From: Lachnospiraceae bacterium P6B14
GTDB taxonomy: Bacteria; Bacillota; Clostridia; Lachnospirales; Lachnospiraceae
Direction of reading: 5' to 3'
Assembly (NCBI GenBank): GCA_000687695.1
Contig: JHWZ01000008.1
Location: 1-64,000 of the forward strand
DNA: 64,000 nt
The notes under the pieces were generated by a model, which saw only the letters and a list, made by a program, of their open reading frames with translations, was not told the origin of the DNA and did not search any database. Positions 41,402-44,232 of this stretch are shown piece by piece. Made by a program: the position numbers and the translations under genes. Position 1 is the first letter of the stretch; each line of letters starts with the position of its first letter.

Positions 41402-44206
41402 ATGAAAAATGTTACGATTGGAATTATGGCTCACGTGGATGCGGGGAAAACCACGCTTTCCGAGAGCCTTTTATATGTGGCAGGTTTGCTGCGTGATGTG
41501 GGACGTGTCGACCACGGTGACGCGTTTTTGGATACCTATGCGCTGGAGAAGGAGAGAGGGATCACCATATTCAGTAAGCAGGCAGTGATGCCATGGGGAA
41601 CTCTAGTTGATACCCCGGGACACGTGGATTTCTCTCCTGAGGCGGAGAGGGTACTTGGAATACTTGATTACGCTATATTGGTGATCAGCGGAACTGATGG
41701 GATACAGGGACATACAAGGACTTTATGGAGGCTTCTCGATGAATACGAGGTGCCTGTTTTTATTTTTGTGAATAAAATGGATCTGGCGGGAGCGGATAAA
41801 GAACAGTTGATGAGAGAACTTTCGAGCGGTCTGTCCGAAGGGTGCGTGGATTTTTCGTCCGTTGCGTCTTCGTTAGTGAGAGGTGATGGGGAGAAAGCTT
41901 CATTCTCTGATGAGATGTCTGAGTCTATAGCAATGCTTGACGAGGATGTGATGGAGAGGTACCTCGAGGATGGTGAGATAGTTGATCAGGATATTCGCAA
42001 GCTGATAAGAGAGAGAAAACTGTTTCCATGCTTCTTTGGGGCTGCTCTAAAGGGAGAAGGCGTAGAGGAGTTCTATCATGGTTTGGGTAGATATACAGAG
42101 GACGTATGGGGAGAAAACACAGAGAAAGACGAAAAGTTAAAAGAAGAATCATTTTCTGCAAGAGTGTTCAAGGTTTCAAGAGATGATAAAGGAACAAGGC
42201 TGACACACATTCGCGTGGTTTCGGGGGTTCTGGCACCAAAGAACGAGCTACAAATTAAAACTGCACCTAATAAACCTATATCAAAAGGCGACGGTTCAAA
42301 TAATGATACGGAAAATATGGTATCTGAGAAGGTTGATCAGATACGCAGATACTCAGGTGAAAAGTATGAACTCCTCACTGAGGCGGGGCCGGGTACTGTC
42401 TGCGCCCTGACGGGTTTAAAGAATACCTATCCCGGTCAGGGATTGGGTGATATGGAGGATATGGAGGAGCCGATCCTTGCGCCGGTGCTGAATTACAGGA
42501 TGATACTTCCGGAGTCTGTGAGTGTCTTGACATTTTTACCGAAGTTAAGGGAACTCGAGGAGGAGATGCCGGAGTTGCACGTGTCTGTCGGAAGGGGGAC
42601 TGTGGCGTCCGGTGATGAGAGTGGTGAAGCCGACACCGATCAGATACATGTCCAGGTTATGGGGCAGGTGCAGACCGAGATCCTGCAGGAAGTGATCCGT
42701 GAGCGCTACGGCGAGGAGGTTGGCTTCGGGCAGGCGCAGATAGTTTATAAGGAGACCGTGACTAAGCCTGTAGAGGGAATCGGGCACTACGAGCCACTCA
42801 GGCACTATGCGGAGGCGCACGTGTCGATAGAGCCTCTGCCACCGGGAAGCGGCGTGATCGCGGATATGTGTGTTTCTACGGACGAGCTGGATCTGAACTG
42901 GCAGAGACTGATCGTGACGCATATACTCGAGAGAGAGCATCCCGGCGTGCTTATCGGGGCGCCTCTTACCGATGTGAAGATAAGTGTGATAGGGGGCCGT
43001 GCGCACCCGAAGCATACTGAGGGCGGCGATTTCCGTCAGGCTACCTACAGGGCGATACGCATGGGACTTATGAAGGCCGAATGCAGGGTGCTGGAGCCGT
43101 ATTATTATTTCAGGCTAAGTGTGCCTGAAACTCAGGTGGGACGCGCGATGACTGATATAGAGCGGATGAGCGGGACGTTCACGCTTGCGGATGATATGGG
43201 TTATGACGGGACAGGTGCGTCAAATACGGCATCCGGCAGCAATCAGACTATGTCTGTTTTGGTCGGGCATGCACCGGTGGTCACGATGCAGGATTATGCG
43301 CGTGATGTAACTGCTTATACGGGCGGACAGGGAGAGCTTAGCCTGAGCTTCCATGGATACCTGCCTGCTCACAATGAGGACGAGCTAAAGGAGAGAATCG
43401 GCTACGATCCCGAGTCCGATGTGGAGAACCTGCCGGGATCCGTATTTTGCGAGCATGGTGCGGGGTTCTATGTGCCGTGGGACGAGGTTAAAGAAAAATG
43501 CCACGTACATACCGGTTGGAAGCCGGGAAACATCGTAAGAGGTGATGACGGGGAGATCGTCAGTGATTCGAGTCGGGAGATTTTTGATGATAACAGTAAC
43601 GAGGCGTATCGTCTGAAAATGATGGATGAGGCGCTCGGTGTCGAGGAGATCGATTCGATACTTGATCAGGCGACTCATGCAAACAGGCGTGCGCCGAAAC
43701 GGTCGTTACGGCGGGCCAGGGAGAAGACCGTGAGGCGGGCGGCAAAGCCGACAGGAGCCGCGAAACCACGGAAGACGAAGGAGAAAATAGGCGATTATCT
43801 GCTGGTCGACGGATACAATGTGATACATGCATGGCAGGAGTTAGCGGATCTGGCCGGTGAAGACATGGAGATGGCCAGGGGGAGGCTGCAGGATATCCTA
43901 TGCAATTACCAGGGATACTCAGGCAAGGATGTTATCCTCGTTTTCGATGCGTATCGTGTGGCGTCGCATGCTACGGAGACTTTTGATTATCACAATATCC
44001 ATGTGGTGTATACCAAGACGGCGGAGACGGCAGATCAGTATATCGAGAGGTTTTCCGTGGAAAAGGCGGACCGATATCATGTTACGGTGGTGACCTCAGA
44101 CGGACTCGAGCAGATCATCATCCGCGGAGCGGGAGCGCATCTTTTGTCGGCAAGGGACTTTGAGGCTGAGGTTTCATCCGCTAATGACGGGGCATTTTTA
44201 CATTGA
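41402..44206 (+). CDS. TetM-like ribosomal GTPase fused to an NYN nuclease
   Basis: Residues 1 to about 700 are an EF-G/TetM-type translational GTPase: G1 AHVDAGKTT (10-18), G3 DTPGHVDF (70-77), G4 NKMD (near 125), then the EF-G-like domains II-V, with a Ser/Asn/Asp-rich insert in domain II. A basic Arg/Ala/Lys linker (~755-790) leads to a C-terminal NYN (PIN-like) domain (~797-930) resembling YacP/Rae1, the B. subtilis endoribonuclease that cuts mRNA in the ribosomal A site. Candidate metal-binding Asp residues are kept: Asp803 in LLVDGYNVIHAW, Asp849 in VFDAYR, Asp878 in ADQYIE, Asp900 in TSDG. The frame is open throughout, 934 residues, nine bases after trkH. It may act in ribosome rescue or drug response; resistance is not shown. 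Confidence 0.85.
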   Translation: MKNVTIGIMAHVDAGKTTLSESLLYVAGLLRDVGRVDHGDAFLDTYALEKERGITIFSKQAVMPWGTLVDTPGHVDFSPEAERVLGILDYAILVISGTDGIQGHTRTLWRLLDEYEVPVFIFVNKMDLAGADKEQLMRELSSGLSEGCVDFSSVASSLVRGDGEKASFSDEMSESIAMLDEDVMERYLEDGEIVDQDIRKLIRERKLFPCFFGAALKGEGVEEFYHGLGRYTEDVWGENTEKDEKLKEESFSARVFKVSRDDKGTRLTHIRVVSGVLAPKNELQIKTAPNKPISKGDGSNNDTENMVSEKVDQIRRYSGEKYELLTEAGPGTVCALTGLKNTYPGQGLGDMEDMEEPILAPVLNYRMILPESVSVLTFLPKLRELEEEMPELHVSVGRGTVASGDESGEADTDQIHVQVMGQVQTEILQEVIRERYGEEVGFGQAQIVYKETVTKPVEGIGHYEPLRHYAEAHVSIEPLPPGSGVIADMCVSTDELDLNWQRLIVTHILEREHPGVLIGAPLTDVKISVIGGRAHPKHTEGGDFRQATYRAIRMGLMKAECRVLEPYYYFRLSVPETQVGRAMTDIERMSGTFTLADDMGYDGTGASNTASGSNQTMSVLVGHAPVVTMQDYARDVTAYTGGQGELSLSFHGYLPAHNEDELKERIGYDPESDVENLPGSVFCEHGAGFYVPWDEVKEKCHVHTGWKPGNIVRGDDGEIVSDSSREIFDDNSNEAYRLKMMDEALGVEEIDSILDQATHANRRAPKRSLRRAREKTVRRAAKPTGAAKPRKTKEKIGDYLLVDGYNVIHAWQELADLAGEDMEMARGRLQDILCNYQGYSGKDVILVFDAYRVASHATETFDYHNIHVVYTKTAETADQYIERFSVEKADRYHVTVVTSDGLEQIIIRGAGAHLLSARDFEAEVSSANDGAFLH

Positions 44207-44232
44207 CGTCATATATTACAATATGATATAAT
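44203..44232 (+). promoter_or_regulatory. Promoter of glycogen phosphorylase
   Basis: TTGACG (44203-44208), 18 bp, TATAAT (44227-44232) with TGA before it. The -35 overlaps the stop codon of the previous gene. Confidence 0.75.

What the first reader, a model, noticed from the sequence alone, without database searches (positions are those of the whole stretch)
41402..44206. TetM-like ribosomal GTPase fused to a Rae1/YacP-type nuclease
Seen: one open frame with a complete EF-G/TetM-type GTPase and, after a basic linker, an NYN domain keeping four candidate metal-binding Asp (803, 849, 878, 900). Known: TetM/TetO bind the ribosomal A site; Rae1 (YacP) cuts mRNA in the A site of translating ribosomes. 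Inference: the GTPase may deliver the nuclease to stalled or drug-bound ribosomes, giving a GTP-gated mRNA cutting or ribosome-rescue system. Its place nine bases after trkH is unexplained.
Basis: partly seen in the sequence, partly recalled or inferred. Interest (0 to 1): 0.78.

Follow-up and report, generated by a model that had tools for sequence, protein, structure and literature searches.

The report
Translation GTPase carrying the cell's Rae1
This bacterium makes one protein that joins an EF-G-like ribosome-binding GTPase to the mRNA-cutting enzyme Rae1, and in many related bacteria this fused form has taken the place of the separate Rae1 gene, which suggests that the GTPase brings the cutter to the ribosome.

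Summary
In detail: 41402-44206 (+) is one 934-aa frame with a five-domain EF-G/TetM-type GTPase (aa 1-702), a basic disordered linker (704-797) and a YacP/Rae1 NYN domain (798-934) with all four Asp. It is no frameshift artefact (intact in 74 of 80 loci from other genomes). The architecture is already in print (Atkinson 2015, ten clostridial species, read as possible resistance). New here: (1) the fusion displaces free YacP: 93 of 96 fused genomes in the order and 23 of 23 outside it have exactly one NYN_YacP match; two genomes hold fusion plus intact yacP at its old place between rlmB and sigH, two hold fusion plus a decayed one. (2) The conserved C-terminal tail of free YacP, where R166P behaved as loss of function in B. 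subtilis Rae1, has decayed in 130 of 130 fused C-termini examined; the four Asp stay in all 130. (3) The GTPase is a separate subfamily, found with or without NYN, lacking the TetM domain IV loop and failing the resistance-protein cut-off. Best reading: the cell's only Rae1, carried to ribosomes by its own GTPase. Replacement is well supported; GTP-gated delivery is inference. TrkH adjacency looks incidental.

The parts
41402..44206 (+). whole fusion gene, 934 aa plus stop
   Evidence: homologous intact frames in 74 of 80 loci
41408..42091 (+). GTPase (G) domain, aa 3-230; G1 AHVDAGKTT, G2 RGITI, G3 DTPGH with His74, G4 NKMD (motif names recalled)
   Evidence: Pfam GTP_EFTU 1.1e-43; H11, G15-T18, R52-I56, D70-H74, N124, K125, D127 invariant in 37 of 37 fused proteins
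42737..43078 (+). EF-G domain IV, aa 446-559
   Evidence: Pfam EFG_IV 6.7e-15
42995..43036 (+). domain IV tip loop GRAHPKHTEGGDFR, aa 532-545, family-specific, in the place of the TetM loop YYSPVSTPADF
43088..43378 (+). EF-G domain V, aa 563-659
   Evidence: Pfam EFG_C 7.5e-13
43379..43507 (+). C-terminal extension of the GTPase with GSVFCxHGxGF motif, aa 660-702; most free-standing relatives end here
43511..43792 (+). linker aa 704-797, mostly disordered; its last 40 residues are basic (+14 here; median +6 in 109 fused proteins)
   Evidence: pLDDT under 50 over 710-746 and 757-793; charge count
43793..44203 (+). NYN_YacP (Rae1-type) nuclease domain aa 798-934, Asp 803/849/878/900; lacks the C-terminal RR tail of free YacP

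Best explanation
A translation factor: an EF-G-like GTPase of its own subfamily, covalently carrying what is the cell's only detectable Rae1/YacP endoribonuclease. SHOWN by sequence: intact two-enzyme architecture; the fused GTPases form one group with a single free form nested in it; in genomes that hold the fusion, free-standing yacP is nearly always absent, sometimes decaying, rarely still intact; the catalytic-type Asp are kept, the C-terminal tail of free YacP has decayed. INFERRED: the GTPase binds the factor site of ribosomes with an accessible A site, so the nuclease no longer needs its own docking tail; because domain IV and the NYN domain should not both fit in the A site, the GTPase would bind first and leave on GTP hydrolysis while the 71-149 residue linker lets the NYN domain enter and cut the A-site codon. 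The cut, non-stop ribosome would be passed to tmRNA-SmpB, both of which the genome encodes.
For: Exactly one NYN_YacP match in 93 of 96 genomes of the order with a fused-length frame and in 23 of 23 elsewhere in the phylum, there seen to lie in the fused frame. Stages of replacement at the ancestral place rlmB-yacP-sigH (gene names checked in L180): intact yacP plus fusion in G149 and G166; a yacP stretch of about 85 codons with 3 in-frame stops plus fusion in G085; about 30 codons plus fusion in G056; no match there in G037 and G062. Tail: held-out free YacP median 56 bits, fused median 3, 0 of 130 fused C-termini above the 5th percentile of the free ones, while the NYN core keeps 183 against 206 bits. 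R166 of B. subtilis Rae1 falls in that tail (position read from the alignment), and R166P was one of the Rae1 suppressors taken by its authors as loss of function (PMC6613710, passages). G-motif residues and His74 invariant in 37 of 37. SmpB and tmRNA present.
Against: No experiment. The free-standing GTPase occurs in three genomes of 96-99% completeness with no YacP match (G591, G613, G636), so the GTPase has a job that does not need the nuclease; among the non-fused genomes of the order, GTPase and YacP do not co-occur significantly (Fisher p 0.12). The NYN tree does not clearly give one origin: one clade is rejected with long rows and one split gene in (AU p 0.002) and has weak support (66/65) with L228, L229, L231 and L048 out. 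The tail comparison was thought of after seeing the sequences, and the fused set is rich in near relatives. That Rae1 works in the ribosomal A site is known from B. subtilis only. AlphaFold does not place the NYN domain on the GTPase.
Confidence: 0.6

Rival explanations
1. Two independent jobs in one chain: the GTPase is an unrelated ribosome-remodelling factor and the NYN domain is a normal Rae1 merely co-expressed by fusion; the nuclease finds ribosomes by itself.
For: Free-standing GTPases exist: 28 genomes of the order have short frames (a few cut or split), 27 of them with a YacP match; 7 in the phylum sample, 3 of them with no YacP match. The linker is long and disordered.
Against: Decay of the free-YacP tail in 130 of 130 fused C-termini suggests that tethering replaced something; the fusion is kept across many families, with only one nested loss seen in 41 rows, though rows were chosen mostly for being fused.
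Confidence: 0.25
2. Tetracycline ribosomal protection protein with an added RNase (Atkinson 2015).
For: Nearest solved structure by sequence is TetO, with EF-G and TetM close behind; best NCBIfam model is tet_protect.
Against: 364 bits against a cut-off of 775; the TetM loop YYSPVSTPADF is replaced by AHxKHTEGGDF or near variants in fused and most free forms; separate from TetM/S/O-W in the tree (which warns that the Tet and EF-G branches are long); present in 36 of 37 genomes of the genus, unlike a mobile resistance gene. Neighbours were not searched for resistance genes.
Confidence: 0.07
3. The nuclease acts on rRNA or tRNA precursors during ribosome maturation, with the GTPase as an assembly factor.
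For: NYN domains had been proposed to act in rRNA and tRNA maturation (as cited in PMC4342817, passage); yacP's home cluster holds rlmB and an RNase III-domain gene.
Against: The studied member of this domain family, Rae1, is reported to attack mRNA in the A site (review passage, PMC12320835).
Confidence: 0.08

Closest known systems
Clostridial Tet-NYN fusions of Atkinson 2015 (PMC4342817)
   Same: Same architecture in Clostridiales: Tet-type translational GTPase plus YacP-like NYN domain
   Different: The passages seen report it in a few sentences for ten species and suggest antibiotic resistance; displacement of free yacP, tail decay, subfamily identity and spread between families are not in the passages seen; additional files were not read
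Rae1/YacP of Bacillus subtilis
   Same: NYN_YacP domain with the same four Asp; 5mq8/5mq9 match 5e-21
   Different: Free-standing, conserved C-terminal RR tail, in Clostridia encoded between rlmB and sigH; here fused, tailless and elsewhere in the genome
TetM/TetO ribosomal protection proteins
   Same: Five-domain EF-G-like GTPase
   Different: Different domain IV tip loops and C-terminal extension (GSVFCxHG), below the family cut-off, separate in the tree
Eukaryotic Hbs1-Dom34 / no-go decay and bacterial SmrB/MutS2 (recalled)
   Same: Works-like idea: ribosome-recognising NTPase coupled to an mRNA endonuclease that prepares rescue
   Different: Unrelated protein families; here both are in one chain

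Membership tests
Rae1/YacP (NYN_YacP, PF05991) | domain match over the curated cut-off | tested here: met
   154.8 bits against 24.6, aa 800-928
Rae1/YacP (NYN_YacP, PF05991) | four active-site-type Asp | tested here: met
   130 of 130 fused, 31 of 31 free
Rae1/YacP (NYN_YacP, PF05991) | C-terminal tail with RR (R165-R166 in B. subtilis) | tested here: not met
   window tail scores -2.3 bits; 0 of 130 fused above the 5th percentile of free
Rae1/YacP (NYN_YacP, PF05991) | gene between rlmB and sigH | tested here: not met
   the fusion follows trkH; the own cysS stretch (10 kb) has no match to yacP, rlmB or sigH
Rae1/YacP (NYN_YacP, PF05991) | translation-dependent A-site mRNA cleavage | not testable with these tools
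   needs experiment
Tetracycline ribosomal protection proteins (NF012153) | score over curated cut-off | tested here: not met
   364.3 against 775 bits
Tetracycline ribosomal protection proteins (NF012153) | TetM-type domain IV loop | tested here: not met
   YYSPVSTPADF in TetM, TetS, TetO/W against AHPKHTEGGDF here
Tetracycline ribosomal protection proteins (NF012153) | raises tetracycline resistance | not testable with these tools
   needs experiment
Elongation factor G (TIGR00484) | score over cut-off and EF-G domain IV loops | tested here: not met
   247.7 against 659.4 bits; loops differ; the genome has another protein (L232) that groups with an annotated EF-G
Clostridial trGTPase-NYN fusion family (Atkinson 2015) | translational GTPase with YacP-like NYN in Clostridia | tested here: met

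The most novel reading that the evidence does not exclude
A one-chain, GTP-gated no-go-decay factor of bacteria: a dedicated translational GTPase subfamily recognises a particular ribosome state and hands its A site to a tethered Rae1 nuclease; the tether has made the docking tail of free Rae1 dispensable, so the fused gene moves between lineages and resident yacP genes decay behind it.
Probability: 0.45. Interest if true: 0.8.

Novelty: new member of a known kind. Interest (0 to 1): 0.6.

Why it matters
How Rae1 reaches the right ribosomes is, as far as I could read, open. This natural fusion names a partner: a translational GTPase subfamily without known function, found also as a free protein in other genomes, most of which have a free YacP. 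The replacement series and the decay of the YacP tail turn 'does this GTPase deliver Rae1?' into a direct test in B. subtilis. It also bears on annotation: a free relative on a Ligilactobacillus salivarius plasmid is listed as a tetracycline resistance protein although it groups with this family.

Tried and rejected
Frameshift or assembly fusion: rejected. Operon function with trk genes: trkH is upstream only in L002; in L004, L006, L007, L016 and L017 trkA lies upstream but points the other way; a glgP match lies downstream in L002, L004 and L016 (flanks of at most 1.5 kb), so some neighbours are kept within the genus. Over 78 loci no gene family is a constant neighbour (commonest cluster 19 of 78; 61 of 78 have 2.5 kb or more upstream). 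Tetracycline resistance: not supported, as above. Co-occurrence of free GTPase with YacP: direction as expected, not significant (p 0.12), and three counter-examples. One origin of the NYN part: unresolved. Phage origin: two 'Bacteriophage sp.' fecal records carry the fusion, one of them marked UNVERIFIED (the other not opened); I take them as bacterial DNA, not followed further. Leroy 2017, Condon 2018, Deves 2023 and Gilet 2025 on Rae1 are not held, so Condon 2018, on the distribution of Rae1, may already mention the fusion; my searches of the held library for it found Atkinson 2015 and nothing else. VIA-align was not available. The regex for the tail (30 of 31 free, 3 of 122 fused) was replaced by the profile test.

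Full report
OBSERVATION. The frame 41402-44206 (+) encodes 934 aa without interruption. Pfam gives GTP_EFTU 3-230, EFG_IV 446-559, EFG_C 563-659 and NYN_YacP 800-928; domain II is just under and domain III well under its cut-off. The AlphaFold model (37 fused proteins, mean pLDDT 78.6, pTM 0.62) aligns over EF-G chains by Foldseek (best E 2.2e-48, TM-score by query length 0.43). It shows two confident modules joined by a mostly disordered stretch, 704-797. B. subtilis YacP structures match the C-terminal part at 5e-21.

NOT AN ARTEFACT. In the window's genus 36 of 37 genomes have exactly one NYN_YacP match, 30 of these 36 in an open frame of at least 840 aa (recount); the other six have shorter frames, one (G013) being split in two; the one miss (G018) is 78% complete.

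PRIOR ART. Atkinson 2015 (PMC4342817; [quoted passage not shown] So the architecture is known. It was written before Rae1 was described (2017, from a reference list). Four later Rae1 papers are not held.

THE FUSION HAS REPLACED FREE YACP. In 245 genomes of the order, drawn at 90% completeness or more, 226 have NYN_YacP and 127 the GTPase family, which is cleanly separated (E at most 1e-60; apart from a second piece of G135 the next hit is 3e-44). Of the 127, 96 have open frames of at least 840 aa, and 93 of these have exactly one NYN_YacP match; the exceptions are G085, G166 and G056, explained below. The match list is cut, so for some genomes the place of the single match was not seen. G149, G254 and G135 have cut or broken fused frames and are not among the 96. 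In a sample of 398 genomes of the phylum 35 have the GTPase. Five of these are in the order; the other 30 were searched for NYN_YacP: all 23 with the fused length have one match, beside the GTPase match in the long frame; of 7 with free GTPase 4 have a free YacP and 3 have no match.

The ancestral place of yacP is between rlmB and sigH downstream of cysS: seen in G059, G042 and G148, and next to rlmB with sigH further off in G238; cysE, cysS, an RNase III-domain gene, rlmB, yacP and sigH were confirmed by family models in G059. G149 and G166, of one genus, have an intact yacP there as well as the fusion (in G149 the fusion frame is cut by the contig start). G085, of the same genus, has the fusion and a yacP stretch with three in-frame stops. 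G056, of another family, has the fusion and about 30 codons of yacP between rlmB and sigH. G037 and G062 have the fusion and no yacP match there. In six genomes of the window's genus (G000, G016, G025, G027, G034, G036) and in G043 none of the other six reference genes matches in the 9-10 kb around cysS. I read these as stages of one process: the fusion arrives, the resident gene decays. G123 and G238, of the window's family, have free GTPase and free YacP.

ORIGIN. In a tree of 69 GTPases (quick IQ-TREE, LG+G4) the family is separate from TetM/TetS/TetO-W and EF-G (SH-aLRT 97; the program warns that the Tet and EF-G branches are long), the 40 fused proteins form one group (99) whose only free member is the plasmid-borne Ligilactobacillus salivarius protein, and the other 23 free GTPases lie outside; two label changes suffice. 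Fused genes of several families, of Desulfosporosinus and of Anaerovorax are intermixed, which suggests horizontal spread. The NYN domain, short and fast, gives no clear answer.

WHAT CHANGED IN THE NUCLEASE. The four Asp are Asp in 130 of 130 fused C-termini (the window, 117 whole and 12 partial frames, identical C-termini counted once, the split L048 left out) and in 31 of 31 free proteins. Free YacP ends in a conserved tail with ..MEKMRRxK. R165-R166 of B. subtilis Rae1 lie in it, and Rae1 R166P was among suppressors of an efp mutant that the authors take as loss of function (PMC6613710, passages). Profiles trained on half of the free proteins, ten splits, score held-out free tails at median 56 bits and fused tails at median 3; none of 130 exceeds the 5th percentile of the free ones, 9 exceed their minimum. 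The core scores 206 against 183. The window's tail scores -2.3 bits. The idea came after reading the tails. The 40 residues before the NYN domain are basic (median +6, at least +3 in 93% of the 109 fused proteins whose borders could be set; +14 in the window).

WHAT CHARACTERISES THE GTPASE. The nucleotide-binding motif residues and His74 are invariant in 37 of 37, so GTP hydrolysis is expected. The domain IV tip reads AHxKHTEGGDF or near variants in fused and most free forms, unlike TetM (YYSPVSTPADF) or EF-G, and a GSVFCxHGxGF extension stands where TetM has its C-terminal stretch. It fails the NCBIfam resistance cut-off. A fused homologue in Monoglobus is annotated 'translation factor GTPase family protein', the free L. 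salivarius one as a Tet resistance protein.

MECHANISM. Rae1 is reported to attack mRNA in the A site of B. subtilis ribosomes (review passage, PMC12320835). An EF-G-like factor that bears the only detectable Rae1 of the cell most simply delivers it. Since domain IV and NYN would compete for the A site, I propose ordered action on one ribosome: GTPase binding, hydrolysis and withdrawal, NYN entry on its tether, cut, rescue by tmRNA-SmpB (genes present). The replacement of free Rae1 is strongly supported; the order of steps, GTP gating and the kind of ribosome recognised are inference. Free GTPases in genomes without a YacP match show that the GTPase has some function of its own.

CONTEXT. trkH lies nine bases upstream here and close upstream in L002; trkA lies upstream, pointing away, in five other congeners, and glgP downstream in L002, L004 and L016; over 78 wider loci no neighbour is general. 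A promoter-like site (TTGACG-18-TATAAT, 11 of 12) overlaps the fusion's stop codon and probably serves glgP.

Noticed in passing
L188 4001-5920 (NZ_CP114545.1): Ligilactobacillus salivarius plasmid protein annotated as TetM-family resistance nests inside the fused clade but has no NYN domain; probably misannotated as resistance.
   Followed up: partly
MT835563.1 5421-7964 and MT835514.1 15276-17759: Two unannotated human-fecal 'Bacteriophage sp.' records carry the fusion (98-99% of the query covered); probably bacterial contigs assigned to phage.
   Followed up: no
window 44203-44232: Near-consensus sigma-70 promoter with extended TG whose -35 box overlaps the fusion's stop codon, 53 bases before the glgP start.
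   Followed up: no
G591, G613, G636 (no loci fetched): Genomes with the free GTPase of this family and no YacP match: the GTPase has a Rae1-independent role.
   Followed up: no
L048; G013:C3 139088-141689: In one congener the fusion is split into a GTPase frame and a 234-aa NYN frame next to each other; sequencing error or recent fission.
   Followed up: no
L004, L006, L007, L016, L017 upstream of the fusion: trkA lies just upstream, pointing away from the fusion, in five congeners, so potassium-uptake genes stay loosely near the fusion within the genus.
   Followed up: partly
window 43631-43690 (aa 744-763): A short motif (EEIDxIL..T..AN, partly helical in the model) in the otherwise variable linker recurs in 65 of 109 fused proteins by a loose pattern; possible binding element.
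   Followed up: no
G645:C4 58571-59245: A genome with the fusion also has a second, broken GTPase-family match (220-aa frame, one stop inside).
   Followed up: no
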